64,000 nt of DNA from Micromonospora sp. NBC_01699. GTDB taxonomy: Bacteria; Actinomycetota; Actinomycetes; Mycobacteriales; Micromonosporaceae. The stretch lies in NCBI RefSeq assembly GCF_036250065.1, contig NZ_CP109199.1, forward strand, positions 6,448,001 through 6,512,000. Direction: 5' to 3'. Positions within the stretch are counted from its first letter, which is position 1; every line of letters starts with the position of its first letter. Below are positions 18,129 through 52,474 of the stretch, one piece after another. The position numbers were made by a program, and so were the translations under genes. The notes under the pieces were generated by a model. It saw nothing but the letters and a program-made list of their open reading frames with translations, was not told the origin of the DNA and searched no databases.

Positions 18129-18190
18129 CGTTGATCATGAAGTTAGCGCAAGTTTGATCTCTATTTCGGTCGCTAACTTCATGATCAACG
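18129..18190. repeat. Palindrome A: 20-bp perfect arms between ykoE and ykoD
   Basis: CGTTGATCATGAAGTTAGCG at 18129-18148 is followed by a 22-base loop and its exact complement at 18171-18190. The loop contains TTGATCTC. A C-rich tract (18092-18115) lies left and a G-rich tract (18210-18246) right, the latter overlapping the ykoD start. It is AT-rich compared with its surroundings. Although terminator-like, it sits within an operon, so it may attenuate, process or protect the transcript. Confidence 0.9.
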
Positions 18191-18213
18191 CGCACAAAGG
18201 AGAGTGAGAGGGG

Positions 18214-19701
18214 GTGGGGGCGGTTAGGGGGGTTGAGGTTCGGGGGTTTGGGTGGCGGCATGCGGGGCGGAAGCGGTGGGCGGTGCGGGGGGTCGATCTG
18301 CGGGTTGAGCGCGGGGAGCGGGTGTTGTTGCTCGGGGCCTCGGGGGCGGGAAAGAGCACGTTGCTGGCCGCGCTCGCCGGGCTGTTGGCCGAGGACTCCG
18401 GGGAGCAGGAGGGGCGGATCGAGGTCGACGGCAGCGATCCGCGTACGGCGCGGGAGCGGGTCGGGATCCTCTTCCAGGACCCGGAGAGTCAACTGGTGAT
18501 GGCGCGGGCCGGGGACGACGTCGCGTTCGGGTTGGAGAACCGGGGGGTGGCGGCCGGCGAGATCTGGGCGCGGGTCGACCAGGCGCTGCACCGGGTCGGC
18601 TTCCCCTACGGGCGGGACCGGTCCACCGCCGCCCTCTCCGGCGGTGAGCAGCAACGACTCGCCCTGGCCGGCGTACTCGCGCTCCGGCCCGGACTGCTCC
18701 TGCTCGACGAGCCCACCGCCAACCTCGACCCGGCCGGCGCCAACCTGGTCCGGGCCGCCATCGGTGCGGCGGTCGACCGGGACACCACCCTGATCCTGGT
18801 CGAACACCGGATCGCCGAGGCACTGCCGCTGGTCGACCGGGTGGTGGTGCTGGAACCGGGCGGCGGCGTGCGTGCCGACGGCACCCCGGACGAGGTCTTC
18901 GCGGCACACGGTGACAGCCTCGCCGACGCCGGGGTCTGGGTGCCCGGCCGGTCGGTGCGCGCCCGACCGGCGGCCACCGCCGCGGGCGAGGGGTTGCTCA
19001 CCGCCGACCGGCTCGGCCTACCACCCCGGCTGGCCCCGACCGATCTGACCGTACGCTCCGGCGAGGCGGTTGCCGTACTCGGGCGCAACGGGGTCGGCAA
19101 GACCACCCTGGCGCTGCAACTCGGCGGGCTGATGAAACCGGGTACGGGTCGACTCACCGCCACTGCCGCCCTGGCCGGAGCCGACGCCGCCACACCACCG
19201 CACCGCTGGCGGGCCACGGCGCTCGTACGCCGGATCGGCTCGGTCTTCCAGTCCCCCGAACACCAGTTCCTCACCGGTACGGTCTTCGACGAACTGGCCC
19301 TCGGGCCACGCCGGACCGGCCACCCCGAAGCCGCCGTGCGCTCCACAGTGGATGAGTTGCTGACCCGGCTGCGACTGGACCGGCTCGCACGCGCGAACCC
19401 GTACACCCTGTCCGGTGGCGAGGCGCGGCGGCTGAGCGTGGCGACCGCGCTGGCCACGGCGCCCCGGCTGCTCGTACTGGACGAGCCGACCTTCGGCCAG
19501 GACCGGCGTACCTGGATCGAACTGGTCGACCTGCTCGCCGATCTGCGCGACGCCGGCCACGGCGTCGTCACCGTCACCCACGACGCCGACTTCGTCGCCG
19601 CGATCGCCGACCGGACCGTGACCCTGGCCGGCGCCACCGACCCGGCGGCCGGCCCCGTGCGCCGGGGAGCCGACGGTGTGCACCGGAAAGGGTCGGCGTG
19701 A
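18214..19701 (+). CDS. ykoD: ECF transporter double ATPase YkoD
   Basis: 495 residues containing two ABC ATPase domains. Domain 1 has Walker A GASGAGKST, signature LSGGEQQRLAL and Walker B LLLLDEPTANLD. Domain 2 has GRNGVGKTT, LSGGEARRLSV and LLVLDEPTFGQD. The Q-loops FQDPESQLV and FQSPEHQFL are typical of ECF ATPases. It energises YkoE with YkoC. The GTG at 18214 lies about 10 bases after AAAGGAG, directly beyond palindrome A; the start itself is in a G-run and could be slightly downstream. It overlaps ykoC by four bases (GTGA). Confidence 0.92.
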   Translation: MGAVRGVEVRGFGWRHAGRKRWAVRGVDLRVERGERVLLLGASGAGKSTLLAALAGLLAEDSGEQEGRIEVDGSDPRTARERVGILFQDPESQLVMARAGDDVAFGLENRGVAAGEIWARVDQALHRVGFPYGRDRSTAALSGGEQQRLALAGVLALRPGLLLLDEPTANLDPAGANLVRAAIGAAVDRDTTLILVEHRIAEALPLVDRVVVLEPGGGVRADGTPDEVFAAHGDSLADAGVWVPGRSVRARPAATAAGEGLLTADRLGLPPRLAPTDLTVRSGEAVAVLGRNGVGKTTLALQLGGLMKPGTGRLTATAALAGADAATPPHRWRATALVRRIGSVFQSPEHQFLTGTVFDELALGPRRTGHPEAAVRSTVDELLTRLRLDRLARANPYTLSGGEARRLSVATALATAPRLLVLDEPTFGQDRRTWIELVDLLADLRDAGHGVVTVTHDADFVAAIADRTVTLAGATDPAAGPVRRGADGVHRKGSA

Positions 19702-20498
19702 TCGTCACCGGGCCGGTCGGTACGGCGACGGCGCCGCTGGCCCGGCGCAACCCGGTCGCGAAACTCGCCGCCGCGCTGGTCTTCTCGTTCACGCTGGTCG
19801 CCACGATCGACCCGGTAGCGCCCGCCGTGGCCATCGCGATCGAACTCGCCGTGCTGCCGCTGTTCGGCGTCCGCTACGCCACCCTGGCCCGACGGGCCTG
19901 GCCGCTGCTGCTCAGCGCGCTCGGCGTCGTGTTCACGATGGTGCTGTTCGCCGCCGACCGGACCGGAACCCTGCTGCTCGACGCCGGCCCGGTCACGGTC
20001 ACCACCGGGGTCCTCGCCTCGGCGTCGGGACTCGCGTTGCGCCTGGTGGCGGTGGCCCTGCCCGGCGTACTGGTGTTCGCGACCACCGACCCGACCGACC
20101 TGGCCGACGCGCTGATCCAGAACGCCAAGGCGCCGCCCCGGTTCGCGCTCGGCGCGCTGGCCGCGTTCCGGATGCTGCCGCTGCTCGCCGCCGAGTGGCA
20201 ACTGCTGGGCATGGCGCGGCGGGCCCGGGGCGTGGACGCCGGGCGCAACCCGGTGGCTCGACTGCGGCTCTTCGCCGCCACCGCGTTCGCGCTGCTCGTC
20301 GGGGCGATCCGCCGGGGCACCCGGTTGGCCACCGCGATGGACGCCCGCGGTTTCGACGCCGGCACCCCGCGTACGGTCGCCCGACGGCAGCGGTTCACCG
20401 TCGCCGACACCGCACTGATCCTGGGTGCCGCCGTACTGGCCGGGGCGGCGCTGACGGTCAGCATCCTGCTCGGTACCTTCCAACCGCTGCTCGGCTGA
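19698..20498 (+). CDS. ykoC: ECF transporter transmembrane component YkoC
   Basis: 266 residues, a CbiQ-type T component with four to six helices. The cytoplasmic coupling segments RMLPLLAAEWQLLGMARRAR and RRGTRLATAMDARGFDAG carry the characteristic Ala-Arg-Gly motifs (ARRARG, MDARGF) that contact the ATPases. GTG 19698 overlaps the ykoD stop. It completes the riboswitch-controlled thiamine/HMP importer. Confidence 0.92.
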   Translation: MIVTGPVGTATAPLARRNPVAKLAAALVFSFTLVATIDPVAPAVAIAIELAVLPLFGVRYATLARRAWPLLLSALGVVFTMVLFAADRTGTLLLDAGPVTVTTGVLASASGLALRLVAVALPGVLVFATTDPTDLADALIQNAKAPPRFALGALAAFRMLPLLAAEWQLLGMARRARGVDAGRNPVARLRLFAATAFALLVGAIRRGTRLATAMDARGFDAGTPRTVARRQRFTVADTALILGAAVLAGAALTVSILLGTFQPLLG

Positions 20499-20541
20499 TC
20501 ATCACCGGTCGGTGTCGCACCGCGGCTCGGGGAGGATTCCG

Positions 20542-21237
20542 ATGACTTTCGTGTTGCGGGTACGGGCCACGGCGTCCACGCCCGCGCTGCTGCTGCGGCC
20601 CTGGATCGAGGCTGACGCCGAGGGGTTGGTCGAGGCGTACCGCGATCCGGTCCTGCGCCGGTGGACCCGGATGCCGGTGGCGCACGCCGGGGACGCGGCG
20701 CGCTGGCTGGCCCTACAGAGCGAGGGTTGGCGGAGCGGAAAGCGGCACAGCTTCGCCGTGCTGGCGGACGGGCCGGTGCAGGATGGGCCGGTGCAGGATG
20801 GGCCGGTGCAGGATGGGCCGGTGCAGGATGGGCCGGTGCAGGATGGGCCGGTGCAGGATGGGCCGGGGCGGGAGGAGCGGCCGGGGCGGTTGCTGGGGAA
20901 TGTCGCGCTGAAGACGGTCGAGCCGGGCTCCGGGTCCGCCGAGGTCGGCTACTGGACGGCGGTCTACGCCCGTGGTCGGGGGATCGCACCGCTGGCGCTG
21001 ACGGCGTTGACCGGCTGGGCCTTCGAGACCTTCGCACCGGCGGGCCTGACCCGCCTGGACCTGCTGCACCAGGTGGACAATGCCGCCTCGTGCCGGGTGG
21101 CGGAGAAGGCCGGGTACCGGTTCGAGCAGGTCCTGCCGGCCCGGCCGCCGTTCCCCAACGACGGTCACGTGCACGTCCGGCACCACGCCCCAGCCGATGC
21201 CGGACCGGTGGCACCGGTCACTTCGACTGCGCGGTGA
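20542..21237 (+). CDS. GNAT family N-acetyltransferase with internal pentapeptide repeat
   Basis: 231 residues of the RimJ/RimL-like GNAT group: LLLRPWIEADAEGLVEAYRD, then GNVALKTVEPGSGSAEVGYW, RGRGIAPLALTALTGWAFE (acetyl-CoA loop) and LHQVDNAASCRVAEKAGYRF. Such enzymes acetylate amines on proteins or small molecules; the substrate is unknown. A surface loop after FAVLADGP is expanded by six copies of DGPVQ from a 15-bp minisatellite. ATG 20542 follows GGGGAGGATTCCG. The 3' end overlaps the convergent gene by 20 bases. Confidence 0.88.
   Translation: MTFVLRVRATASTPALLLRPWIEADAEGLVEAYRDPVLRRWTRMPVAHAGDAARWLALQSEGWRSGKRHSFAVLADGPVQDGPVQDGPVQDGPVQDGPVQDGPVQDGPGREERPGRLLGNVALKTVEPGSGSAEVGYWTAVYARGRGIAPLALTALTGWAFETFAPAGLTRLDLLHQVDNAASCRVAEKAGYRFEQVLPARPPFPNDGHVHVRHHAPADAGPVAPVTSTAR
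20770..20859 (+). repeat. 15-bp tandem repeat, 6 copies, inside the GNAT gene
   Basis: Unit GGGCCGGTGCAGGAT is repeated six times without a mismatch, followed by a degenerate partial copy. Each unit encodes DGPVQ, so copy-number change keeps the frame. Perfect identity suggests recent expansion by slippage or unequal exchange. Confidence 0.95.
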
Positions 21238-21859
21238 CCCTGGTGGCGGTGACCGTGCCGGCGGAGTTCGGTCCGTCGACGGTGACGGTGTCACCGGCCC
21301 GGAGGTCGCTGAGCGAACCGGACCGGGCGATCGCCACGGCGGTGTCGGCGCCGGTCCGTACCGTGATCACGGTGCCGTCGGCGGTCTGTAGGTAGACGGT
21401 GGTGCCGTCGACGAGTTTCACGGTGCCGGTGGTGCTCTGCGCCGTACCGGTCTCGGTGTCGGCACCAGCGGCGGTTCCCGTAGCGCCGGGGCGGCCGGCG
21501 GCGCCGGGGAAACCGGGGAAGCCGGCCGCGCCGCGCTGGGCACCCCGGCCGGTCGCGGCCGCCGGACCGGTTCCGGCCGGATTACCGTACGACTTCTGCA
21601 CCTGCACGCCACCGGCGAAGCCGCCGATCAGCAGCACCGCCGCACCGAGGTAAAGCGTTGCCCGGTTCCACCAGCGGCGACCCGCCACGGCGGCCAGCTC
21701 ACCGGCGAGGTCGTCGTCGGGTCCCGCCCCGGCCGGCGGGGCACCCGGTCCGGCGGCCACGGGCGGCGGACCGACCACGGTCGGGGCGTCCGCCGACAGG
21801 TCGCGGTGCACACCGGGTACGTCCGGCGACCGGCGGCCCCACCGCGCTGCTCTCGTCAT
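21218..21859 (-). CDS. Single-pass membrane protein with C-terminal beta domain (DUF5666-like)
   Basis: 213 residues: a cytoplasmic Pro/Ala-rich start, one membrane segment (about residues 67-84, ATLYLGAAVLLIGGFAGGV), a Gly/Ala-rich linker with collagen-like GFPGFPGAAGRPG triplets, then a small beta domain (TTGTVKLVDGTTVYLQTADG, DLRAGDTVTVDGPN). The domain resembles DUF5666/OB-like stability domains found with MacAB-type exporters. It lies 58 bases after the permease gene and is probably the last gene of that operon. Confidence 0.7.
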   Translation of the reverse strand: MTRAARWGRRSPDVPGVHRDLSADAPTVVGPPPVAAGPGAPPAGAGPDDDLAGELAAVAGRRWWNRATLYLGAAVLLIGGFAGGVQVQKSYGNPAGTGPAAATGRGAQRGAAGFPGFPGAAGRPGATGTAAGADTETGTAQSTTGTVKLVDGTTVYLQTADGTVITVRTGADTAVAIARSGSLSDLRAGDTVTVDGPNSAGTVTATRVTAQSK

Positions 21860-21917
21860 GGCTGCTCCCCCGGAGGTCTCGTCCTGGCTGGGCCCGCCCG
21901 CCCCGAATCACTCGTCA

Positions 21918-23134
21918 TCACTCGTAGCGGAGGGCGTCGATGGGCCGCAGGCCGGCCGCCCGGCTCGCCGGTACGCTGCCGAAGAAGAGTCCGATCGCGA
22001 CCGAGACGCCCAGCGCCAGGGCAATCGAACCGGGCACCACCACCGGCTTGACGCCGACGATGGTGAACTGGCTGCCGACCAGGGCCGCCAGCACGCCCAG
22101 TCCCCCGCCGACCAGGCTGAGCATGGTCGCCTCGGCCAGGAACTGGGTCAGGATCACCCGGCGGGGCGCACCGAGCGCCTTGCGGATGCCGATCTCGCGG
22201 GTCCGCTCGGTCACCGTGACCAGCATGATGTTGGTGATCCCGATCCCGCCGACCAGCAGGCTGATCCCGGCCACCGCGCCGAGCAGGACGGTGAAGGTGT
22301 CCGCGGTCTCGGTCTGGGTCTGGGTCTGGAGCAGCTGGGCCGCGTTCTGAATCCGGTACGGTGCGCTCTGCGCCCGCCCGGCGGCGGCCGGGGTGATCCT
22401 GAGGCGCTGGTCGAGGATCGTGGCGATCTGCGCCTGGGCGTCGTCCACCCGGTCCGGTCCGGTCGCCTCGACCAGCACCGAGTTGACCGGTCCGTAGCCG
22501 GTGAGGGTCTGCTGGACCGCGGTCAGCGGCGCGATCGCCACGTCGTTGGCATCCTGGAACCCGGTCGCGGAACCCTTCTCCGCCAGTACGCCGACCACCG
22601 TGTAGAGCGCTCCGCCGACGGTGACCTGCGCGCCGATCGGGTCGGTGCCGGGAAACAGCTCGGCTGCCACGGTCTGCCCGATCAGCAGCACCCGCCGGCC
22701 CTGTGCAAGATCGGAGTCGCCGAACGCGGCGCCGGTCGCGACCGAGGTGTTCGACGCCCCCAGATAACTCGGGTACGTGCCGACGAACTGCGCCACCTGG
22801 TGGTCGGCGCCCTGGTGGGTGATGGTCGCCGACGCGTTCACCACCGGGGAGACCGACCGCACGTCCGGGGCCAGGACCGGGTCCCGCAACGCCAACGCCG
22901 TCGGTACGGTGATCGCGTCACCGCCGCTGCCGCCGCGCGCTGTGCTCTGCACGGTGAGCGTGCTGCTGCCCAGCGCGGCGATCCGGTCGGTGATCTGTTT
23001 CGCCGAGCCGTTGCCGACGGCGACCAGCAGGATCACCGCGCCGACCCCGATCAGGACACCGAGCATGGTCAGCGCCGAGCGGAGCTTGTTGACGGTGATG
23101 CCGCGTACGGCGAACCGCAGGATCTCGAAGAGAC

Positions 23135-23138
<4 letters not shown>
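21918..23138 (-). CDS. MacB-like ABC transporter permease
   Basis: 406 residues with the MacB/FtsX plan. One N-terminal helix (ALTMLGVLIGVGAVILLVAV) is followed by a large extracytoplasmic MacB-PCD domain and three C-terminal helices (ISLLVGGIGITNIMLVTVTE, LSLVGGGLGVLAALVG and the last near the end). The conserved cytoplasmic TREIGIRKALGAPRRVILTQ is present. It overlaps the ATPase gene by four bases and would form a tripartite exporter of peptides, lipids or drugs with the adaptor upstream. Confidence 0.9.
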
Positions 23139-23904
<766 letters not shown>

Positions 23905-23908
<4 letters not shown>

Positions 23909-25278
23909 CGCCCACCGCGCGGGGCCCCGGCGCCCCGGGGAAAGCCGCCGCCACCGGTGAAACCGCCGCCCGTCCGGCCGGCACCGGTCGATCCGGTCCC
24001 GGCCGTCGCGGCGGTCCTGAGTACGACCAGCTCACCCACGCTCAGCCCGGAGGTGACCTGTACGGTCTGGTCGCCGGTCAGCCCGACCTCGACCGGGCGG
24101 GTCACCGGCTGCCCGTTCTCCAGCACGGTCGCGGTGTGCCGGTTGCCGACGGTGGTGAGCGCCGCCGAGTTGACGTAGATCGCGTCCTGCGCCTGGCCGA
24201 CGATTACGGTCGCCTGGACGGTCTGGCCGGGACGGACACCGGGCGGGAGCTGGTCCAGCCCGAACACCACGCCGTAGGTGACCACGTTGTTGCTGGTGCT
24301 GGCGTTGGGGTCGATCGAGGTGAGCTTGCCGGTCGCGGTGGCACCGGCGAGCGCGTTCCAGGCGATCGTGGCCGCCTGCCCCACCCTGAGCTTGGTCGCG
24401 TCGGCCTCGGCAACCGAGGCGGACACCTCCAGTTTGCCCAGATCCGCGAGCTGAACAAACCCGCCCGACGCGCTGCCACCCGATGCATTGCCGGACGACG
24501 CGCTGCCACCCGATGCATTGCCGGACGACGCGCTGCCACCCGATGCATTGCCGGACGATGAGCCGGACGCGTTGCCCGACGACGAGCCGGACGCGTTGCC
24601 CGACGACGAGCCGCCCGACGACAACGCACCGGACGAGCCCACGCCGGACGAACCGTTCGACTGGCCGGCGGCGGAGCCGCTACCGCTCGGGCCAGCGCCG
24701 TTGCCGGCGGAACCACCAACGGCGCCGTTGACGGAACCACCGACGGTTCCGTTTACGGCGATCACGGTGCCGGCCATCGGCGCCCTGAGCACCGTGCCGT
24801 CGACCGCGTCCCGGGCGGTGTCGACGGCCAACTGGGCGGTGGTGACCTGGCTCCGGGCGTCGGTGGTGTCGGCGCCGGCCGCCTCGGCTCGGTCCCGGGC
24901 CGCCTTCGCCGCGTCCAGGTTGGCCCGCGCGGCGGTGAGCTGCCGGTTCGCGGCGGTCGGGTTCACCTTTGCCAGCACCGTGCCCGGTGTGACCAGGTCA
25001 CCGACCCTGACCAGGATCTCGCTGACCGTACCGCCGGTGCCGAAGGTGGCGGTCGCGGTGGCGGCGCTGCGCAACGTACCGGGCGCGGAGACGGTGGCGG
25101 TCACCGTGCCCTGCCCGACCGGGAGCGTACGGGTCGTACCCCCGGTCGCCGCCGCGCTCGACTCGGGCTCGACAAACGAGGCGTAGACCCAGACACCACC
25201 GCCGATGATCGCCAGGCCGAGTACGGCGTTGACGAGCACCGACGGGCGGCGTAGCAGACCCAGACGTCGCACCGGCAT
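23905..25278 (-). CDS. HlyD/MacA-like efflux adaptor protein
   Basis: 457 residues anchored by an N-terminal helix (VLVNAVLGLAIIGGGVWVYA). A lipoyl/biotinyl-like half (VRVGDLVTPGTVLAKVNPTA), a helical hairpin (ANLDAAKAARDRAEAAGADT) and the second half (LRAPMAGTVIAVNG) are split by a Ser/Gly/Asn-rich insert of about 100 residues made by DNA repeats. The barrel part YVNSAALTTVGNRHTATVLE closes the protein. It links the ABC permease to the outer envelope or substrate. ATG 25278 (MPVRRLGLL) is preferred over 25347, with moderate certainty. Confidence 0.87.
24466..24610 (-). repeat. 30-bp and 24-bp tandem repeats inside the adaptor gene
   Basis: Three 30-base copies (24466-24555) are followed by two 24-base copies of a related unit. 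They encode SSGNASGGSA and SSGNASGS-type peptides. All units are multiples of three, so copy number can vary without frameshift. The result is a flexible insert in the middle of the adaptor. Confidence 0.9.
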
Positions 25279-25381
25279 GCGGTCCAGCCTGGATCCCCCA
25301 ACTCGAAACAACCCCAACGCCACCTCGAAGCCCCCTGAAAACCCCACCCCCTCCCCTCCCCCTCCCCCCGAACCACCCCGA

Positions 25382-25445
25382 CGTCGATCTAGGGCAAATA
25401 CGTGTGATTAGAGATCAACTAACACGTATTTGCCCTAGATCGACG
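25382..25445. repeat. Palindrome B: 24-bp perfect arms upstream of the adaptor gene
   Basis: A 24-base arm beginning CGTCGATCTAGGGCAAAT (25382-25405) pairs exactly with 25422-25445 around a 16-base loop. On the minus strand the loop reads TAGTTGATCTCTAATC, with the same TTGATCTC as palindromes A and C; its first 18 bases equal the arm of palindrome C. It is flanked by a C-rich tract (25327-25378) on the left and a G-rich tract (25448-25500) on the right, and lies between the histidine kinase stop and the adaptor start. Confidence 0.93.
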
Positions 25446-25510
25446 ACGAGGAGGAGGGGGAGGGGGAGGGGGAGGAGGAGGGGGAGGAGGAGGGGGCGGC
25501 GGGCTTGGGG

Positions 25511-27145
25511 TCAGTGGGGGTGGGGTGGGGTGGGTAGCAGCAGGCGGAAGGTTGCGCCGGTGCCGGTTGAGTCGATCAGGTCGACGCGACCGCCGTGGGC
25601 CTGCACTATTGCGGCCACGATGGCCAGGCCCAGCCCGGAACCGACACCGGGCGTACGGGTGCGACTCTGGTCGATCCGGTAGAGCCGCTCGAAGATCCGG
25701 CCGGCGTGCTCGGGCGGGATGCCGGGACCGGTGTCGGACACCTCCAGCACCGCGTACCCGGGAATCGGGTCGGTGGTGGACCGGGCCGGGACCGGGGCGG
25801 ACCAGCGGCCGACCCGGACGGTGATCCGGGCGTCCGGCGGGGTGTGTTGCAGGGCGTTCGTGACCAGGTTCGTCGCCACCTGGCGCAACTGGTGCTCGTC
25901 ACCGAGCACGGTGACCGGCTCCAGGCCACCACCGGGGGTGTCCGCGTCGGCGCCGCCCTCGAACGGGACCAGCCGGATCGGCCGGTCGGGGCGGCGGGCG
26001 TACGCGTCCCGGATGGTGTCGGCGGCGATCGCCAACAGGTCCACCGGGGCCCGGTCCATCGGCCGGCGCAGATCCAGCCGGGCCAGGTGCAACAGGTCCT
26101 CGACGAGCAGGCCCATCCGGGCCGCCTCGCCCTCGATCCGGCTCATCGTCTCGTCCAGTGCCGCTCCGGGTGGTGCCCCGCCGCGCCGGTACAGCTCGGC
26201 GAAGCCGCGGATCGAGGTGAGCGGCGTACGCAACTCGTGCGAGGCGTCCGCGACGAACTGCCGAAGCCGCTGCTCGGAGGCGGTACGGGCGGCCATCTCG
26301 GCGCCGATCCGGTCGAGCATGACGTTGAGCGCGATGCCCAGCCGCCCCGGCTCGGTGTGCGGGTCGGCGTCCTCCACCCGCCGGGCCAGGTTACCGGCGG
26401 TGATCTCGCTGGAGATGTTCTCCATCCGGGTCAGCGGGCGCAACCCGATCCGTACCACCAGCGCGGCGACCAGCCCGAGCACGAGCAGGACCAGCACCAT
26501 CACCGTGCCGTCGATCAGCAGCAGCCCTTCGGCGGTGGCGTCGACGTCGCGCAGCGACACCGCCACCACGGCCAGCCCGCCGCTCGCGGTCGGTGCGGAC
26601 AGCGCCCGCCACCCGCTGCCGGAGTCGACCGCGTCCACGGTGAACGGCCTACCGCCGTCGGCCCGACCGGCGAGGTCGGCGAAGCCGGTCAGGTCGGGCG
26701 GGGAAAGTTCCTCGTGGGAGAGGACGGCGACCAGCACCGAGCCACCCGGGTCGTAGATCACCACCGCCTGGCCCGGCCCGCCGGCCGGGGTGGATCGGCC
26801 GCCGTGGGCCGGCGCGGGGCCGAGCTCCGGCACCAAACCCGCGATGTACGGGCGGATCGACCGCTGCAACTGCTCGTCCACCCGATCGGTGAGGTACGAC
26901 CGGAGCAGCACCAGCCCGGCCGCGTTCGCCACGACCAGCGCGATGGCGGTCAGTACGGCGATCACCACCACCAGCCGGGCGCGCAGCGTCCAGTGGCTCC
27001 ACCTGCGTACCCGGGCCAGTCGCCGCCGCCACCGCCCGACCGGGGGTGCCGCCGTCCAGTCGGGCGGTGGCGGGGGCGGCCAGCCGGGTGCGGCGGCCGG
27101 ACCGGGTGGTCCGGAACCGCCGGGCTGGCCGAGCCGGCCGGTCAC
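25511..27145 (-). CDS. Sensor histidine kinase
   Basis: 544 residues: a Pro-rich cytoplasmic start, helix 1 (LVVVIAVLTAIALVVANAAG), an outside sensor region of about 170 residues, helix 2 (GTVMVLVLLVLGLVAALVV), HAMP, then HisKA with phospho-acceptor FVADASHELRTPLTSIRGFA, and HATPase_c with N box NLVTNALQH, G1 DTGPGIP and G2 GSGLGLAIV. GTG 27143-27145 overlaps the response-regulator stop (GTGA). It probably controls the efflux genes around it; the signal is unknown. Confidence 0.93.
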   Translation of the reverse strand: MTGRLGQPGGSGPPGPAAAPGWPPPPPPDWTAAPPVGRWRRRLARVRRWSHWTLRARLVVVIAVLTAIALVVANAAGLVLLRSYLTDRVDEQLQRSIRPYIAGLVPELGPAPAHGGRSTPAGGPGQAVVIYDPGGSVLVAVLSHEELSPPDLTGFADLAGRADGGRPFTVDAVDSGSGWRALSAPTASGGLAVVAVSLRDVDATAEGLLLIDGTVMVLVLLVLGLVAALVVRIGLRPLTRMENISSEITAGNLARRVEDADPHTEPGRLGIALNVMLDRIGAEMAARTASEQRLRQFVADASHELRTPLTSIRGFAELYRRGGAPPGAALDETMSRIEGEAARMGLLVEDLLHLARLDLRRPMDRAPVDLLAIAADTIRDAYARRPDRPIRLVPFEGGADADTPGGGLEPVTVLGDEHQLRQVATNLVTNALQHTPPDARITVRVGRWSAPVPARSTTDPIPGYAVLEVSDTGPGIPPEHAGRIFERLYRIDQSRTRTPGVGSGLGLAIVAAIVQAHGGRVDLIDSTGTGATFRLLLPTPPHPH

Positions 27146-32159: not shown

Positions 32160-32920
32160 GCGCGCCGGCACCACCCACCGGTCCGCTGACGCCGGCACCA
32201 CGGCTGCTGATGTGGGACATCGACGGCACGCTGGTGCAGACCGGAGGGGTCGCGAAGCTCGCGTACGCGGAGGCTTTCACCGCCCTGACCGGGGTGGCCT
32301 GGCAGCGGATGCCGCACTCGGCCGGCCGGACCGACCGGGACCTGGCCGCCGAGGCGTTCACCACGCACGGCGTCGCCGACTACGAGCCGTTGCTGGAGCA
32401 GTTCTTCCTCCGCTACGCCGCCGCGCTCGCCGCCCGCCGGCATCTGATCACCGAGCAGGGGCGGGTACTACCCGGCGTCGCCGCGGTGCTCGCCGGGCTG
32501 GGCGCCCATCCCCACGTCGTCCAGACCCTGGTGACCGGCAACATCCCCGCCGTCGCCGAGGACAAGCTCACCGCCCTCGGTCTCGGTGCCGGCCTGGATC
32601 TCGACATCGGCGGCTACGGCCGGCACGACACCGTACGCGCGGCCCTGGTCCGCCAGTGCCGTGACCGGGCCGAGGCCAAGTACGGACACCGCTTCGCCCC
32701 CGCCGACATCCTGGTCATCGGCGACACCGTGCACGACGTAGCCGGTGCGCTGGCCAACGGAGTAACCGCCGTAGCCGTGGCCACCGGCACCACCCCCGCC
32801 GCCGTCCTCACCGCAGCCGGCGCCCACACGGTCCTAACCGACCTGACCGACACCCCCGAGGTAATCAGAACCCTCGCCACCCGCCGCCTCGTCGATCTAG
32901 GGCAAATCGTTGTGAGTTGA
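32156..32920 (+). CDS. HAD family phosphatase
   Basis: 254 residues. Motif I is MWDIDGTLV, motif II lies in VTGNIPA, motif III in [13 protein letters not shown] and motif IV in [16 protein letters not shown]. The cap contains [13 protein letters not shown]. It is phosphoglycolate-phosphatase-like, and since the gene overlaps a thiamine-binding protein gene, a phosphorylated thiamine or HMP intermediate is a possible substrate (inference). The last residues VDLGQIVVS and the stop are encoded inside palindrome C. Confidence 0.87.
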
Positions 32921-32953
32921 TCTCCGATCACCCCCATTTGCCCTAGATCGACG
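32890..32953. repeat. Palindrome C: 18-bp perfect arms across two convergent stops
   Basis: CGTCGATCTAGGGCAAAT (32890-32907) pairs exactly with 32936-32953 around a 28-base loop that includes AGTTGATCTC. The arm equals the outer 18 bases of palindrome B. It holds the last codons and stop of the HAD gene and the stop of uppS (TAG in CTAG), and could act as a bidirectional terminator. G-rich repeats follow on the right. Confidence 0.93.
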
Positions 32954-37061: not shown

Positions 37062-37132
37062 CGATCTTGCACTTGTGGTCGTCCACAAATCCGGATGAGT
37101 GCCCTAAATCAGGCACCACAAGTGCAAGATCG
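37062..37132. repeat. Palindrome D: 18-bp perfect arms
   Basis: CGATCTTGCACTTGTGGT (37062-37079) and its exact complement (37115-37132) flank a 35-base loop. The outer CGATCTTGC resembles the CGATCTAGGG outer arms of B and C, but the loop lacks TTGATCTC. It lies between the acyltransferase start and the epimerase stop, so it could end the epimerase transcript. A modest G-rich stretch follows on the right. Confidence 0.88.
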
Positions 37133-41303: not shown

Positions 41304-42362
<1,059 letters not shown>

Positions 42363-43943: not shown

Positions 43944-44043
43944 CGGCCCAACCCTCCACCGCCACGTTCCCGCCACCGTCAAGATCACGCTGATGATATC
44001 GGCGGCGCCACCCCGTACGCCGAGGACGGTTGCCCGGCAGCGG

Positions 44044-44403: not shown

Positions 44404-44425
44404 GCTATGCCTCCGGGGGATGATG

Positions 44426-45181: not shown

Positions 45182-45256
45182 CCGGAAGCCCCGGGCTCAA
45201 CATCAAGAGACGCGTTGGGCCCTGCCGCATCCGGTCCCGCAATTAGGCTCCGAGAT

Positions 45257-45652: not shown

Positions 45653-45665
45653 CCGGGCCACGCAC

Positions 45666-46151: not shown

Positions 46152-46221
46152 TCCCGCCCCCGATCGCCGGGAAAGGCCGTCCCGGCACCGTCCAGCCGCA
46201 AAAGCGGGCGACCCACCACCG

Positions 46222-46666: not shown

Positions 46667-47361
46667 CGAACATAATCGACCCGGCCTTGCACAGCCGCCC
46701 GGAACGCCTTTCCAGTTGCCGTCGCGAGGGGTTCGTCGTAGTAGACAGCACCGTGGTCGTCGATCCAAGTCGTGATAAACCAGCCGAGCTGGTACACGTT
46801 GTCACTCATCAAGCGACGGATCATCTCCTGGTAGCGCTGACTGTAAGACATGCCATGGAAAGCAGGGTCCACCGGAAACAGGGCGGACATATGACGACCA
46901 GCCTTTTCGGTCTCTGAGCTTTCCTCCAGGACGAAGACGTAGCCGAGCCAGGGCGGGATATCCCCGAACGCTTCGAACTTACGCTGCGCCTCCTTCGCGT
47001 CAGTTCCCGCTCCTAGAGCCTCTTCGAGACGGTTGCTGATATTCTTGCCGACACTACCGACCTGACTCTTGAATTCGAACGCAGCAACCAGCGCTCCTCT
47101 GTACCGTACCGCCAGGTCCCAATTTTTGCGGGCTCGGTAGTAGCCGGGCAGGTACGGCTCCCTGACAATCGCCTCTTCGGGCATTCCAGCCTCGACGAAT
47201 ATCGACGCCACAAGCTCACGGATTCCGTTCATGTGCTTACCGGCGCGGGCGCCACCACCGGCGGCACCCCGGTCAGGCAAGGCAGCCAACTGAGCAGTGC
47301 GCTTATCCCAGAACAGGGAAACTGCGTCGCTGGTGGGATCGGGGATGGTGTCGTCAGACAA
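46651..47361 (-). CDS. PaeR7I/XhoI-type restriction endonuclease
   Basis: 236 residues of the PaeR7I family (Type II, known members cut CTCGAG). DAVSLFWDKRTAQ, GKHMNGIRELVASIFVEAGM, YYRARKNWDLAVRYRGALVA and AFEFKSQVGSVGKNISNRLE carry the D...ExK-like catalytic centre (D in NWDLAVR, E and K in FEFKSQ). The TTG at 47361 is preferred, with AAGGACTACGAAC upstream, and overlaps the methyltransferase stop by eight bases. The base composition looks less GC-rich than its neighbours. Specificity for CTCGAG is an inference from the family. Confidence 0.88.
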   Translation of the reverse strand: MSDDTIPDPTSDAVSLFWDKRTAQLAALPDRGAAGGGARAGKHMNGIRELVASIFVEAGMPEEAIVREPYLPGYYRARKNWDLAVRYRGALVAAFEFKSQVGSVGKNISNRLEEALGAGTDAKEAQRKFEAFGDIPPWLGYVFVLEESSETEKAGRHMSALFPVDPAFHGMSYSQRYQEMIRRLMSDNVYQLGWFITTWIDDHGAVYYDEPLATATGKAFRAAVQGRVDYVRQVLG

Positions 47362-49027
47362 GTTCGTAGTCCTTGAGGTCGATTCCGTACGCCTCGGCGG
47401 CAGCCACGGTTGCCGCGTCGACGTCACGATCGCGAAATGCCCGCGCGAGCCGGGCGCGGGTACCGGCGTGTACGGCATCGGGGCGAGGTACCCGGATCTT
47501 CTTCAGATACTGAGCCTGAAAGCGCAGCGTATTGCCATTCATGCGTACGCAGTAGGCTTCGATGAACGCCTGCGCGATCCGGGACAGCAGCAATCCCCCG
47601 AGAACGTTCAGGTCCCACTTGTCGGAAACCACGTAGTACAGGTTGTGGTGTGGATAGTGCCCGCCCGATTCCAGCACAGGATGAATGGTGGACTTCATAT
47701 CCTGTAGCAGTAACTTATCCCGCCCGGTCAGATTGGGATCGACCTTGTCGATGGTCCGGTACCAGGCCGCCGGGGTCTTCGTCGCCACGTATCGGCCGCG
47801 CAACTTCAGCCTGTGCGCCCTGAAGTAAGCATTCAACCTCGGGTAGTGGTCGAGGTCAACCAGTGATCCGTCCTCGTGCCAGGGGTTGACCAGGTAGGTG
47901 CCCGACCAGGCGAAGGTCCCCGACGTCAGGTCCCGGACCATCGCCAATGGGATCAGCCGCTCGGACTCGACGCAGTGCGGGTCCGTCGTCATGAAGACCC
48001 CGTCGGCCCCGGTTGCCACGCCGATACTGACCTTTGTCCCCGTCTCCGCGTCGTGCAGCGGACGGAACTTGTCGTTGAGTTTCTCGATCAGCCTCAGCCG
48101 GGCCGGGCTTCCCGTCGGCCATGACTCGTCGCCGCCGAACCAGTGGGGCAACCTGTATGCCTCGACACCGCGCCCGCTGAACCCCGACGCCCGAGCGGTG
48201 GCGCTCCAGGCCACCAGCCGCGCCGCCGTGTGCTCGTCGAATCGGGCGGTGGTGTCAGCGACGATCACACCGCCCTGCTCGCCCTGACGGATTACCGTGA
48301 TGGCCGGGTAGGCGCACACCTGCTGCTCGAAGGCGTCGACATCATGCATGACCCAGACATGGTCGAGGGCGTAGCCGTCGGCGACCATCTTGCGTAGGCC
48401 CCTGCCGTACTGGTTGCGCATCCATCTGTCCGCGCAGATGAACGCCACCCGTCCCCCCGGACGCAGAATCGACAGAGATCGTTCGATGAAACCGACGTAG
48501 GCATCGGCCCGCCCGCCCATCGCTGGCCAACGCTTGCGGTACTGCCCCGCCAGCTCGTCCGGGATGTCCTCCAGCCGGATGTAGGGCGGGTTGCCGATCA
48601 CGATGTCGGCCCGATGGTCCGGCGATATCCACCGCACGTTTCCACTCAACAGGTAGTCACCGCTCACCACCCACAAGCGGGCCAGCCGCTGGGCATCGTC
48701 CGGGTCAACTCCAGAGGTGACCAGCGTGGCGGCGATCCGCGCGCGCAGGTCCGAGGCAAGCTGCGGCTGAACCTCCCACGCCCGGATGCAGTCGGCAAGC
48801 TCGTCGATCGCGTGGCCGTGGGCTCGGGCACTGGTCAGCAGCCGCTCGATCGCCGGCAGTAGAAACGCCCCCGCCCCCGCCGAGGGCTCGACCAGCCTCA
48901 GCAGGGCCAGATCGCGGTCGACAAGGTAGCCGGACAGGTCGAGTAGTACGTCCACCACCCACCGGCGCGTGAAGACGTCACCAAACGTACGTTCCTGCTG
49001 ACCCTGATCCATTACAACTGCCGACAC
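47354..49027 (-). CDS. N6-adenine DNA methyltransferase of the PaeR7I-type system
   Basis: 557 residues. Motif I is EPSAGAGAFLLP (about residues 45-56) and motif IV is NPPYIRLEDI, typical of gamma-class N6-adenine methyltransferases such as M.PaeR7I and M.XhoI. A C-terminal target-recognition region follows (YHPRLNAY-like stretch, LQDMKSTIHPVLESGGHYPH, MNGNTLRFQAQYLKKIRVP). GTG 49027 follows AGGGTGGCTGAC; ATG 49012 is an alternative. It is transcribed first, so protection precedes cleavage. No control protein is visible. Confidence 0.88.
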   Translation of the reverse strand: MSAVVMDQGQQERTFGDVFTRRWVVDVLLDLSGYLVDRDLALLRLVEPSAGAGAFLLPAIERLLTSARAHGHAIDELADCIRAWEVQPQLASDLRARIAATLVTSGVDPDDAQRLARLWVVSGDYLLSGNVRWISPDHRADIVIGNPPYIRLEDIPDELAGQYRKRWPAMGGRADAYVGFIERSLSILRPGGRVAFICADRWMRNQYGRGLRKMVADGYALDHVWVMHDVDAFEQQVCAYPAITVIRQGEQGGVIVADTTARFDEHTAARLVAWSATARASGFSGRGVEAYRLPHWFGGDESWPTGSPARLRLIEKLNDKFRPLHDAETGTKVSIGVATGADGVFMTTDPHCVESERLIPLAMVRDLTSGTFAWSGTYLVNPWHEDGSLVDLDHYPRLNAYFRAHRLKLRGRYVATKTPAAWYRTIDKVDPNLTGRDKLLLQDMKSTIHPVLESGGHYPHHNLYYVVSDKWDLNVLGGLLLSRIAQAFIEAYCVRMNGNTLRFQAQYLKKIRVPRPDAVHAGTRARLARAFRDRDVDAATVAAAEAYGIDLKDYELV

Positions 49028-49167
49028 GTCAGCCACCCTAGGCGGAGCCCTCGCCGACACGCGAGGCGACCTGCGGACGACCACGGGTATCGGGGTGTGG
49101 ATGGGCATGCGGGGGCGGCTTTCGGCTGGCAGGATCGAGCGGAATCGACCTTTCAGGGGGCGGCGGG

Positions 49168-51606
49168 ATGACGGCAGCGGCGACAGCTTCGGCAACCGAG
49201 ACGGCGATCGAGCGGGCGCTGACCGCGCTCGACCTGGAAACCAAGGCCCGGCTCCTGTCCGGCCAGGACTGGTGGACCCTGCCCGCACTGCCCGAGATCG
49301 GGCTCCGCTCCCTGGTGATGTCCGACGGGCCGATCGGCGTACGCGGAATCGGCTGGACCCCCGACGACCCGTCGGTGGCGCTGCCCAGCCCGACCGCGCT
49401 CGCCGCCACCTGGGATCCGGAGCTGGCCAGGACAGCCGGCCGGCTGCTCGGCCAGGAGGCCCGGCGCAAGGGTGTGCACGTGCTGCTCGCTCCCACGGTC
49501 AACCTGCACCGCAGCCCGCTCGGTGGCCGGCACTTCGAGTGCTACTCCGAGGATCCGCTGCTCACCGGCGAGATCGGCGCCGGCTATGTCACCGGCGTGC
49601 AGGACCAGGGCGTCGGCACCACGGTCAAGCACTTCGTCGCCAACGACTCCGAAACCGAACGGTTCACCGTCGACGTACGGGTGTCCGACCGGGCGCTGCA
49701 CGAGCTGTACCTGGCCCCGTTCGAGCGGATAGTGGCTGCCGGAGCATGGGGCGTGATGGCCGCGTACAACGGGGTCAACGGCGTCACCATGACCGAACAC
49801 GCCGACCTCCAACACGGGCTCCTGAAAGAACGCTGGGGCTTCGACGGGTTCATCGTCTCCGACTGGACCGCCGCCCGGTCTGCGGTGGGCACCGCCAACG
49901 GCGGGCTCGACGTGGTGATGCCCGCCCACGGTGACCCGTGGGGGCCACAACTGGTCGCCGCCGTACGCGCCGGCCGGGTCGCCGAGGACATGGTGGACGA
50001 CAAGGTACGGCGGGTTCTGCGCCTCGCCGCACGGGTGGGCCTGCTGGACGGCGTACCCCCGGCGGTGGAACCCGACGATCGGCCGGCGCCGCTGCACGGA
50101 CCCGACGTGGCGCGTTACATCGCGACCCGCTCCTTCGTGCTCGCCCGGAACGTCGCCGACCTGCTGCCGCTGGACTCGACCGCGCTGCGCCGAGTAGCGG
50201 TCTGCGGCGCGCTCGCCACCGACGCGAGGATCCTCGGCGGCGGCAGCGCCCAGGTCGTCCCGGAGCGGGTCGTCTCCCCGCTCGCCGGGCTCACCCTCGC
50301 GCTACCCAACGCCGAGGTCACGTACGCGATCGGCGCCGACCCCCGGCCGAGGCTCGCCGCCGCCGGCGGCGAACAGTGGTCCTCGATCACCGCGACCCTG
50401 CGCGACGCCGACGGCGAAGCGCTCTACCGGGCCGAGTTGAGCACCGCCGTCGCCCGCTGGTTGGGCGCCCTGCCCGCCGGCGTCGACCCGACCGAACTGG
50501 CCTCGGTCGAACTGTCCGCCCGCTGCACCCCGCACACCAGCGGTGAACACCAGCTCTCGATCGACGGGTTCGGGCTGTTCAGGCTCACCGTCGCCGGCAC
50601 CGAGATCTTCGACGGCCCGCTCTTCGACGGGGAGCAGGACCCGGCGGAGACATTCCTCGCCCCGGTGGAGCGACGCTTCGCGATCACCCTGCTCGAAGGC
50701 GAACCGGTGCAGGTGACCCTGACCCAGCAGGTGGTCGAGGGAATGGCCGGCGCCGTGCACTTCGCCCTCGGCCACGCCGCACCGACCGCCAGCCCCGACG
50801 AGTTGATCGACGCGGCCGCCCGCGCCGCCGCCGAGGCGGACGTGGCCGTCGTCGTGGTCGGCACCACCGAACAGGTCGAGTCCGAAGGCTTCGACCGGAC
50901 CAGCCTCGCCCTGCCCGGCCGCCAGGACGAACTGGTCAGCCGGGTCGCCGCGGCCAACCCGCGTACGGTCGTCGTGGTCAACGCCGGCTCCCCGGTCCTG
51001 ATGCCCTGGGCCGACGAGGTGGCGGCGATCCTGCTCACCTGGTTTCCGGGACAGGAGGCCGGTGCCGCGCTCGCCGACGTACTGCTCGGCGTGGCCGAGC
51101 CCGGCGGGCGGCTGCCCACCACCTGGCCCCGACACGCCGACGACGCACCCGTCCTCTCCACCGCCCCGACCGACCGCACCCTCAGCTACGACGAGGGCGT
51201 TTTCATCGGCTACCGGGGCTGGCGGGCCGAACCCCTCTTCCCGTTCGGCCACGGCCTCGGCTACACCACCTGGGCGTACGAGTCACTGACGGTCGACACC
51301 ACCGCCGACAACCCGGTCGCGGTGGTGACGCTGCGCAACGCCGGCAGCCGTACCGGCCGTGAGGTGGTACAGCTCTACGTCGGCCCGGCCGAGCCCGACC
51401 CCGAGCGCCCGACCCGGCAACTCGCCGGCTTCGCCACGGTCACCGCCGCACCCGACGAGACGATCACCGTACGCGTCCCGCTGGCCGCCCGCTCCACCCA
51501 GATCTGGGCCGGTCAATGGCGTACGGTCCCCGGCCCCTACACCGTAGAAGCCGCCCGAGGCGTCGCCGACATCCGCCTGACCACCACCCTGGAAGTCACC
51601 GACTGA
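49168..51606 (+). CDS. Glycoside hydrolase family 3 beta-glucosidase-like
   Basis: 812 residues without a signal peptide. The GH3 TIM barrel has GPIGVRG, HRSPLGGRHFECYSEDP, TVKHFVANDSETERF and the nucleophile in FIVSDWTAARS (Asp at about residue 232). The second sandwich domain starts VARYIATRSFVLARNVADLL. A PA14-like insert (ELSARCTPHTSGEHQLSIDG) lies in the middle and a fibronectin-III-like domain ends the protein. It likely removes terminal beta-glucose, xylose or related units inside the cell. It is divergent from the methyltransferase gene. Confidence 0.92.
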   Translation: MTAAATASATETAIERALTALDLETKARLLSGQDWWTLPALPEIGLRSLVMSDGPIGVRGIGWTPDDPSVALPSPTALAATWDPELARTAGRLLGQEARRKGVHVLLAPTVNLHRSPLGGRHFECYSEDPLLTGEIGAGYVTGVQDQGVGTTVKHFVANDSETERFTVDVRVSDRALHELYLAPFERIVAAGAWGVMAAYNGVNGVTMTEHADLQHGLLKERWGFDGFIVSDWTAARSAVGTANGGLDVVMPAHGDPWGPQLVAAVRAGRVAEDMVDDKVRRVLRLAARVGLLDGVPPAVEPDDRPAPLHGPDVARYIATRSFVLARNVADLLPLDSTALRRVAVCGALATDARILGGGSAQVVPERVVSPLAGLTLALPNAEVTYAIGADPRPRLAAAGGEQWSSITATLRDADGEALYRAELSTAVARWLGALPAGVDPTELASVELSARCTPHTSGEHQLSIDGFGLFRLTVAGTEIFDGPLFDGEQDPAETFLAPVERRFAITLLEGEPVQVTLTQQVVEGMAGAVHFALGHAAPTASPDELIDAAARAAAEADVAVVVVGTTEQVESEGFDRTSLALPGRQDELVSRVAAANPRTVVVVNAGSPVLMPWADEVAAILLTWFPGQEAGAALADVLLGVAEPGGRLPTTWPRHADDAPVLSTAPTDRTLSYDEGVFIGYRGWRAEPLFPFGHGLGYTTWAYESLTVDTTADNPVAVVTLRNAGSRTGREVVQLYVGPAEPDPERPTRQLAGFATVTAAPDETITVRVPLAARSTQIWAGQWRTVPGPYTVEAARGVADIRLTTTLEVTD

Positions 51607-51635
51607 CCGTCGGCCCCCGGCCCGATCGATCCGGC

Positions 51636-52370
51636 CTACCAGCGCCCAAGCCTCGCCGACAACACAGCCAGCGCCGCCACGCCCGCGGTCGACGTACGCA
51701 GCACCGCCGGACCCAGGCGCACCGTCCGCGCACCGACCGCCTCGAATGCGGCCACCTCGGCCGGGGTTATGCCGCCCTCCGGCCCCACCACCAGCACTAT
51801 CTCCCCGCTCGCCGGCAGCTCCACGGTGGAAAGCCCCACCGTCGCCTCCTCGTGCAGCACGAAGCCCGCCGCCGCCCCGGCGATCCGGTCCACCACCCGC
51901 CCGGTCGACTCGTCCGGGGGCCCGGCCACCACCGGCAACCACGACCGGCGGGACTGCTTCGCCGCCTCCCGCGCGGTCGCCACCCACTTCTCCCGCGCCC
52001 GGCCACCCCGCTCACCGCGCCACTGCACCACCGAACGGGACGCCGCCCAGGGCACGATCTCGTCCACCCCGACCTCGGTCATCGCCTGTACGGCCAACTC
52101 GCCCCGGTCCCCCTTGGCGATCCCCTGCACGACCACCAGACGCGGGTCGCACGCATCGTCGTACGCCAACGAGCTGATCCGAAGCTCCAACGTCCCCCGG
52201 CCGACGGCCGTCACCACCGCGCTGGCCGTGCCACCCCGCCCATCCGCGAGCAGCAACCCCTCCCCCACCCGCAACCGCTGCACCGTAGCCGCATGATGCC
52301 CCTCAACTCCCCCCAGCGTGAACACTTCCCCCACCGGCAGGTCCTCCACCAAAAACAACGCCACAGACAC
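51636..52370 (-). CDS. rsmE: 16S rRNA (uracil1498-N3)-methyltransferase RsmE
   Basis: 244 residues. An N-terminal PUA-like part (LFLVEDLPVGEVFTLGGVEG) leads to the SPOUT domain, with ELAVQAMTEVGVDEIVPWAA, ATAREAAKQSRRSWLP and the SAM-binding knot LVVGPEGGITPAEVAAF. It methylates U1498 of 16S rRNA. It stands downstream of dnaJ in the same direction, as in relatives, but palindromes E and F separate the two. ATG 52370 is the first codon. Confidence 0.93.
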   Translation of the reverse strand: MSVALFLVEDLPVGEVFTLGGVEGHHAATVQRLRVGEGLLLADGRGGTASAVVTAVGRGTLELRISSLAYDDACDPRLVVVQGIAKGDRGELAVQAMTEVGVDEIVPWAASRSVVQWRGERGGRAREKWVATAREAAKQSRRSWLPVVAGPPDESTGRVVDRIAGAAAGFVLHEEATVGLSTVELPASGEIVLVVGPEGGITPAEVAAFEAVGARTVRLGPAVLRTSTAGVAALAVLSARLGRW

Positions 52371-52426
52371 GAAGAAAGGCTAACCGCTCCCCCACCCCCA
52401 CCCCCACCCCCAATAAGGCCCCTCAC

Positions 52427-52474
52427 GTAGAAAAAGAGTGGCTACCCCCAAAGGAATAACCACTCTTTCTCTAC
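52427..52474. repeat. Palindrome E: 15-bp arms, one mismatch
   Basis: GTAGAAAAAGAGTGG (52427-52441) pairs with 52460-52474 (one mismatch) around an 18-base loop with CCCCC and GGAATAA. It is markedly AT-rich. A C-rich tract (52388-52412) precedes it, so the layout resembles palindromes A and B. It lies upstream of rsmE and may belong to the leader of that gene. Confidence 0.85.

What the first reader, a model, noticed from the sequence alone, without database searches (positions are those of the whole stretch)
18129..52474. A family of long intergenic palindromes with shared arms and a shared TTGATCTC loop motif
Five elements (A 18129-18190, B 25382-25445, C 32890-32953, D 37062-37132, E 52427-52474) have near-perfect arms of 15-24 bases and loops of 16-35 bases. 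B and C share an 18-base arm exactly (CGTCGATCTAGGGCAAAT) though they are 7.5 kb apart. A, B (minus strand) and C all carry TTGATCTC in the loop. Ordinary terminators do not conserve their loops, so these look like a dispersed element: a REP or MITE-like family, or a protein or RNA recognition site built into a hairpin.
Basis: partly seen in the sequence, partly recalled or inferred. Interest (0 to 1): 0.8.

Follow-up and report, generated by a model that had tools for sequence, protein, structure and literature searches.

The report
DNA palindromes paired with dedicated nucleases
The palindromes in this stretch of an actinobacterial genome belong to four scattered families, and each family also brackets its own gene for a nuclease-like protein, which points to an undescribed kind of repeat-and-enzyme partnership.

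Summary
The five palindromes are real but form four families, not one. B and C (F1) belong to a 93-copy family of fixed length with near-invariant arms GATCTAGGGC and a conserved centre, TTGATCTC. A belongs to a second family (F2) with variable loops; its TTGATCTC is chance. D and E are families F3 and F4. F1 copies sit about 57 bp behind stop codons, strongly enriched at convergent gene ends. No RAYT-type (Y1) transposase was found in this genome or two congeners.

Four matches of one protein family were found in this genome, and each gene is bracketed by one of the four palindrome families. The protein joins an AbiEi-like DNA-binding half to a Vsr/EDxHD-type nuclease half. The layout recurs in other genera, Pseudonocardia and mycobacteria, and arm type follows the nuclease tree. 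Matched flanking palindromes occur at 33 of 98 nuclease genes fetched, 0 of 157 neighbour genes.

Best reading: REP-like elements whose partner is a Vsr-type nuclease instead of a Y1 transposase. The pairing is shown by sequence; that the nuclease binds, cuts and spreads the palindromes is inferred. Many copies are old and inherited, and some genomes with many copies showed no matching nuclease.

The parts
18129..18190 (.). Element A: palindrome of family F2 (arms CGTTGATCATGAAGTTAGCG, 62 bp, free loop), behind the + strand ORF that ends at 18091
   Evidence: at the same place with the same arms and another loop in two sister species
25382..25445 (-). Element B: palindrome of family F1 (64 bp), behind the - strand ORF that ends at 25511
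   Evidence: absent at this place in two sister species
25342..25381 (+). C-rich tract left of B
   Evidence: sequence; composition of F1 flanks
25446..25495 (+). G-rich tract right of B
   Evidence: sequence; composition of F1 flanks
32890..32953 (+). Element C: palindrome of family F1 (64 bp) between convergent ORFs; both ORFs end inside it (32920 and 32943)
   Evidence: not among the F1 matches of the sister species at this place
37062..37132 (.). Element D: palindrome of family F3 (arms CGATCTTGCACTTGTGGT, 71 bp)
   Evidence: 59 F3 copies in this genome
52427..52474 (.). Element E: palindrome of family F4 (arms near GTAGAGAAAGAGTGG, 48 bp)
   Evidence: two F4 copies bracket a nuclease gene elsewhere in this genome

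Best explanation
The palindromes are four families of REP-like, non-coding elements. Each family is paired with one gene, outside the window, that its own palindrome brackets on both sides. The protein has an AbiEi-like DNA-binding half, which most likely reads the conserved arms, and a Vsr/EDxHD-type nuclease half. Shown by sequence: the families, the bracketing of one protein family by matching palindromes, the clustering of arm type on the nuclease tree, and the placement behind stop codons. Inferred: the nuclease binds and cuts its palindrome (as duplex, cruciform or single-strand hairpin) and so seeds or renews copies; the copies that persist sit behind stop codons, where they do little harm and may act as two-way terminators or 3'-end protectors.
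For: Four palindrome families and four listed nuclease matches in this genome, each gene bracketed by one family: F1 at chromosome 22986-23921, F2 at 7848204-7849106, F3 at 961789-962619, F4 at 2279468-2280265. Palindromes with shared arm words on both sides: 33 of 98 nuclease genes against 0 of 157 neighbour genes and 0 of 58 window genes (Fisher p 4e-16). Arm labels cluster on the nuclease tree: 22 changes against 47.4 shuffled, 0 of 200 as low. In 20 of 38 nuclease genes (score 200 or more, with a downstream GATC palindrome) the gene runs into the palindrome; mycobacterial homologues show a like layout with arms GAGCAGACG. In 6 of 7 F1-type loci with both copies these stand in inverted orientation. 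Within the genus, F1-type nuclease present/present/not listed in G000/G001/G002 with 93/24/13 copies, F3-type present/not listed/present with 59/0/57. Fold of a homologue (pLDDT 91): AbiEi antitoxin 6y8q (E 4.9e-6) and homing endonuclease I-Bth0305I 3r3p (TM 0.70-0.71 on the target, E 0.006-0.007). F1 stem: 205 cells changed on both sides against 96.0 shuffled, covariation 0.236 against 0.124 shuffled and at most 0.072 slid. F1 context: 39 of 90 convergent against 7.0 expected, median 57 bp behind the stop against 124 at random.
Against: Recent movement is not shown: 11 of 13 G002 copies and 12 of 22 examined G001 copies of F1 sit where G000 has one, and no clean empty site or target duplication was found. 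Some genomes with many copies showed no matching nuclease: G039 (36 F1 copies; best match weak, its locus at a contig edge without palindromes, draft of 780 contigs), G025 (50 F3 copies; best match E 2e-39, no palindrome found), and no F3-type pair was seen at the fetched loci of G010, G038 and G046. One search scored only 76 of the first-look candidates in most genomes (76 of 105 in G000). G001 keeps its F1 nuclease with only 24 copies. Pfam: MTES_1575 and AbiEi_4 stay below their cut-offs in the four own proteins, DUF559 passes in three. Of 50 homologues scoring 200 or more, 13 had a GATC palindrome on one side only and 8 on none; below 200, 35 of 48 had none by that test. In the pair count, the number of pairs with changes on both sides (14 against 12.2, reached in 43 of 500 shuffles) is not distinct.
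Confidence: 0.6

Rival explanations
1. The palindromes are operators. The AbiEi-like protein represses its own gene through the upstream copy, as AbiEi antitoxins do, and the dispersed copies are binding sites of the same protein as a global regulator or nucleoid protein; the nuclease half is secondary.
For: AbiEi and Rv2827c bind inverted repeats in their own promoters (PMC7319586, passages). An upstream copy lies roughly 100-200 bp before the aligned start of many nuclease genes.
Against: Dispersed F1 copies lie behind stop codons and at convergent ends, where operators are not expected. A second copy sits at the 3' end, often holding the stop codon. Pairing is kept by changes on both sides while the stem sequence drifts between genera.
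Confidence: 0.15
2. The palindromes are host terminators or 3'-end hairpins with conserved stems, spread by ordinary recombination, and the nuclease genes happen to use them as landing sites.
For: Median 57 bp behind stop codons, 39 of 90 convergent; very stable as RNA; C-rich, G-poor leader before the hairpin in both directions, which could load Rho.
Against: No T-rich tail; arms are conserved in sequence far beyond what folding needs; families are patchy among related genomes; the C/G tracts are equally strong on sides that carry no gene end (tandem and divergent places); does not explain one nuclease gene per family with inverted flanking copies.
Confidence: 0.13
3. Each nuclease gene with its two palindromes is, or was, an insertion sequence, and the dispersed palindromes are MITEs moved by a DDE or other transposase that I did not recognise.
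For: Inverted flanking copies with the gene filling the space between them; patchy distribution.
Against: The bracketed gene is the nuclease-like gene in every family examined, with no second gene seen between the copies at the F1 locus; no target duplication seen; only Y1 transposases were searched for.
Confidence: 0.07
4. Classical REP elements moved by a RAYT (Y1) transposase.
For: Dispersed intergenic palindromes.
Against: No PF01797 match in G000, G001 or G002; size and tag differ.
Confidence: 0.02

Closest known systems
REP elements with RAYT transposases, REPtrons (PMC3733652: passages and first part of the discussion; PMC2817692 and PMC3116915: search listing only)
   Same: Dispersed intergenic palindromes; a partner gene flanked by copies; several families per genome.
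   Different: Partner is an AbiEi-like/Vsr-type nuclease-like protein, not a Y1 (HUH) transposase; elements are 48-71 bp; no GTAG tag.
CGTC-tagged REPs without a known transposase (PMC3733652, passages)
   Same: F1 outer ends often read CGTC; palindromes without a RAYT partner.
   Different: Those have 8-9 bp stems and 4-5 base loops; the words actinobacteria, Streptomyces, Micromonospora and Frankia do not occur in that paper's text.
AbiEi antitoxins of type IV toxin-antitoxin pairs (PMC7319586, passages)
   Same: Fold of the N-terminal part; known to bind inverted repeats near their own gene.
   Different: Fused to a nuclease-like half; no AbiEii toxin recognised by eye beside the F1 gene.
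EDxHD/Vsr-type nucleases: homing endonuclease I-Bth0305I, E. coli Vsr, MTES_1575 REase (PMC3710099, passages)
   Same: Fold of the C-terminal part; acidic residues and His conserved in the four own proteins.
   Different: Bracketed by palindromes of a dispersed family; activity untested. The name EDxHD is recalled, not from a call.
Terminator hairpins built from DNA uptake sequences (mentioned in PMC2267715, passages)
   Same: Inverted pairs of a conserved short sequence behind genes.
   Different: Here arms come mostly as pairs of fixed spacing and have a nuclease partner.

Membership tests
REP/RAYT | Y1 transposase (PF01797) in the genome | tested here: not met
   0 matches in G000, G001, G002; 9 of 61 genomes searched match
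REP/RAYT | Short palindrome (20-40 bp) with GTAG-type tag | tested here: not met
   elements are 48-71 bp without such a tag
REP/RAYT | Many dispersed intergenic copies | tested here: met
   93 F1, 39 F2 and 59 F3 copies by the patterns used; context checked for 90 F1 copies only
REP/RAYT | Partner gene flanked by copies in opposite orientation | tested here: met
   by a nuclease-like gene of another class; 6 of 7 F1-type loci inverted, by small score margins
CGTC REP | 8-9 bp stem, 4-5 base loop | tested here: not met
   arms of 15-24 bases; features as tabulated in PMC3733652
MITE | Target-site duplication | tested here: inconclusive
   no clean empty site among the few places compared
MITE | A coding element with the same ends | tested here: met
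   nuclease-like genes bracketed by each family
Intrinsic terminator | Hairpin behind a stop codon | tested here: met
   F1: median 57 bp behind the stop, n=116 gene ends (own gene finder)
Intrinsic terminator | T-rich tail | tested here: not met
   right flank 68% G over 60 bases, n=90
Intrinsic terminator | Stops transcription | not testable with these tools
   needs RNA data
Type IV toxin-antitoxin (AbiE) | AbiEi-like protein | tested here: met
   PADLOC AbiEi E 3.5e-20 to 1.4e-10 for the four own proteins; fold 6y8q; Pfam AbiEi_4 below cut-off in three and absent in one
Type IV toxin-antitoxin (AbiE) | AbiEii toxin next door | tested here: inconclusive
   none recognised by eye at the F1 locus; other loci not checked
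Vsr/EDxHD nuclease | PD-(D/E)XK core of Vsr type | tested here: met
   3r3p TM 0.70-0.71 on the target; conserved D, E, H; PDB profile hits weak (E 0.002-0.3)
Vsr/EDxHD nuclease | Cuts DNA | not testable with these tools
   needs biochemistry

The most novel reading that the evidence does not exclude
A previously undescribed class of selfish or domesticated bacterial element: short palindromes seeded and renewed by a dedicated protein that reads them with an AbiEi-like domain and cuts them with a homing-type Vsr nuclease, one cognate protein per palindrome family, several families per genome, across several actinobacterial families. The C- and G-rich tracts around the copies would then be scars of break and repair at the palindrome.
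Probability: 0.42. Interest if true: 0.93.

Novelty: new variant of a known kind. Interest (0 to 1): 0.83.

Why it matters
REP-like palindromes are widespread bacterial repeats, and some families have no known partner enzyme. A second, unrelated protein class paired family by family with palindromes would show that this way of life arose more than once, and would give a function to proteins now annotated only as DUF559-, MTES_1575- or AbiEi-like. It is directly testable: four proteins and four palindromes from one genome form a ready cross-specificity matrix.

Tried and rejected
One family for A, B and C: rejected. REP/RAYT: rejected for this genus. Rfam at gathering thresholds: only a TPP riboswitch in the window. 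Phage spread: exact patterns of F1, F2 and F3 gave 0 hits in viral contigs; the F1 nuclease gave no match in the phage records and two partial, weak matches on Tsukamurella plasmids. RNA-only function of F1: changes at pairs 28-37 (TA 97, TG 36, CA 0) and 30-35 (GC 126, GT 18, AC 3) favour a structure on the TTGATCTC strand, but orientation to the upstream gene in tandem places is only 23 sense to 13 antisense; not decided. The first fold (L294 first) had a poor C-terminal third and was replaced by one with L272 first. F1 orientation was mis-scored and corrected. One spurious F1 match (L058 at 5530) was dropped from the context counts. Gene context rests on a simple codon-usage gene finder of my own, which missed the G001 F1 nuclease in the control.

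Searches for a prior description. Nothing in the listings describes palindromes paired with DUF559/MTES_1575/AbiEi proteins; most listings were capped (for example 15 of 116 papers, 20 of 317), and the library holds open-licence papers only.
Full report
1. What is there. The window is G000:C1:6448001-6512000 of an 8.28-Mb genome in one contig. All five palindromes exist at the stated coordinates and fold much better than shuffles. They fall into four families, not one.

2. Families. F1 (B, C): 64 bp; arms GATCTAGGGC invariant or nearly so in 148 copies from six genomes, a near-invariant G-C pair at columns 23-42, and a conserved centre around GTTGATCTC. With up to 2 mismatches in the arms it has 93 copies in G000, 24 in G001 and 13 in G002 (same genus) and occurs in 11 of 161 genomes searched, among them G028 87, G113 64, G048 48 and G039 36; the control is 0 throughout, and the hits in G105 and G133 (2 and 1) listed are at the two-mismatch limit. 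F2 (A): arms GATCATGARGTT, free loops; 39, 25 and 46 exact-pattern copies in G000, G001 and G002, present in 14 of 201 genomes. F3 (D): arms GATCTTGCASTT; 59, 0 and 57 copies, present in 22 of 201 genomes, up to 139 copies. F4 (E): arms near GTAGAGAAAGAGTGG, 48-49 bp; seven distinct copies in the loci held, not counted genome-wide.

3. Structure of F1. On 83 aligned copies from six genomes a 26-pair hairpin has 86.3% standard pairs, 205 cells changed on both sides against 96.0 shuffled, and a covariation score of 0.236 against 0.124 shuffled and at most 0.072 with slid partners; the number of pairs with changes on both sides, 14 against 12.2 shuffled, is not distinct. The stem between arm and centre differs between genera but mostly stays paired, so palindromy itself seems constrained. 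In G000 many copies combine two half-types (ACGTG and GGTGG) that do not pair with each other.

4. Place. Of 90 F1 copies in G000 (of 93) with fetched flanks, 39 lie between convergent genes, 38 between tandem and 13 between divergent genes; 7.0 convergent would be expected from element-free intergenic space (p 5e-20). Median distance to the upstream stop is 57 bp against 124 for random places. These gene calls are my own and crude. Sixty bases to the left are 66% C and sixty to the right 68% G (n=90), against 37-38% C behind 173 element-free gene ends. The pattern is alike in convergent, tandem and divergent places, and is absent where the element is absent in a sister species in the two cases looked at (B; L197/L104). 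In other genera it is weaker: 43-53% C and 41-56% G (n=10, 4 and 8).

5. Age. Element A is at the same place in both sister species with the same arms and another loop; B is absent there, and no F1 match lies at the place of C. Of the F1 copies, 11 of 13 in G002 and 12 of 22 examined in G001 lie where G000 has one; one is shared by all three. Most copies in hand are therefore inherited. Of the 12 places shared by G000 and G001, 11 have no counterpart among the 13 G002 copies.

6. The partner gene. In G000 two F1 copies 1.3 kb apart bracket one gene, and likewise in G001. Its product matches MTES_1575, DUF559 and AbiEi_4 in Pfam; of the four own proteins DUF559 passes its cut-off in three, while MTES_1575 and AbiEi_4 do not reach theirs. 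PADLOC calls the four AbiEi. Profile hits in the PDB are an endonuclease-like protein (E 0.002), I-Bth0305I (0.005) and Vsr (0.3). A confident model of a homologue (L272, pLDDT 91) resembles the AbiEi antitoxin 6y8q over its N-terminal part and 3r3p over its C-terminal part. AbiEi and Rv2827c bind inverted repeats (PMC7319586, passages). MTES_1575 is described as a Vsr-fold REase (PMC3710099, passages).

7. The pairing. One search lists four matches in G000 at E up to 0.001 (76 of 105 first-look candidates were scored). Each is bracketed by one of the four palindrome families: F1 22986-23921, F2 7848204-7849106, F3 961789-962619, F4 2279468-2280265. Palindromes with outer GATC stand on both sides in 33, on one side in 22 and on none in 43; for homologues scoring 200 or more, 29, 13 and 8 of 50. 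A test for shared arm words finds matching pairs at 33 of 98 nuclease genes, 0 of 157 neighbour genes in the same loci and 0 of 58 window genes (p 4e-16). A looser control on 390 genes near F1 copies of G000 gives 6 with some GATC palindrome on both sides, of which only the nuclease gene has the same arms on both. In 20 of 38 genes scoring 200 or more with a downstream GATC palindrome, the gene runs into it. In 6 of 7 F1-type loci with both copies these are inverted to each other, by score margins of 1 to 5; L250, whose centre is not F1-like, was left out. Of the 28 named loci, 14 hold GAGCAGACG palindromes: 5 on both sides of the gene, 7 downstream only, 1 upstream only, 1 inside a long ORF call; 3 hold a further copy elsewhere, two of these being near-identical loci.

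8. Co-evolution. On a tree of 86 nuclease proteins the labels (arm types, other, none) need 22 changes against 47.4 shuffled, 0 of 200 as low; relatedness alone can cluster labels. F1-like, F3-like and F2/AAGAGGTTTG arms sit largely in separate clades, with exceptions such as L250, L265 and L310. Within the genus, F3 elements are missing where no F3-type nuclease is listed (G001) and F1 elements are fewest where no F1-type nuclease is listed (G002; its region matching the F1 gene locus holds other sequence); one weak match each in G001 and G002 was cut from the listing. Against this, G039 and G025 have 36 F1 and 50 F3 copies without a matching nuclease found, and at the fetched loci of G010, G038 and G046 I saw no F3-type pair. 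These may be gaps in drafts, in the capped search or in my sampling, or real losses of the gene.

9. Mechanism. Most likely the AbiEi-like half reads the arms and the Vsr-type half cuts at or near the palindrome, giving new or renewed copies through repair; only copies in harmless places persist, and behind genes they may serve as two-way 3'-end hairpins. The flanks fit loosely: reading towards the element both 3'-ending strands are C-rich, as if breaks had been tailed, but Rho loading is an alternative. No biochemical step is shown here.

10. Novelty. The organisation resembles REPtrons, but the protein is unrelated and the defining Y1 transposase was tested and not found. The searches of the open library found no description of such pairs (capped listings, no subscription papers). 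The genome is probably of the Micromonosporaceae: an inference from named homologues such as L294, Micromonospora phytophila, which carries F2-like palindromes on both sides.

Noticed in passing
window 17322-17428: TPP riboswitch (65.9 bits) shortly before the + strand ORF whose 3' end carries element A.
   Followed up: no
window 25342-25495 and flanks of fetched F1 copies: C-rich left and G-rich right tracts of about 60 nt around F1 copies in all gene contexts; absent with the element in two sister-species comparisons.
   Followed up: partly
window 32897-32953: Both convergent ORFs end inside element C (32920 and 32943).
   Followed up: partly
L272-L291: Homologous nuclease genes in mycobacteria, Nocardia, Skermania and Pseudonocardia stand next to palindromes with other arms (GAGCAGACG, GAGCAGAGTT, GATCATGAGC, GATCAAGG).
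   Followed up: partly
L270, L330-L333, L338, L339: Weaker nuclease homologues have nearby palindromes without outer GATC, perhaps further cognate pairs.
   Followed up: no
L239 2497-2710: Two F1 copies 150 bp apart in the same orientation.
   Followed up: no
F1 copies of G000: Middle parts are mosaics of two half-types (ACGTG and GGTGG) in several combinations, which suggests exchange between copies or halves.
   Followed up: partly
L210 1412-1473 and L061 1076-1502: An F1-like element in G001 whose counterpart in G000 looks decayed, in conserved surroundings.
   Followed up: no
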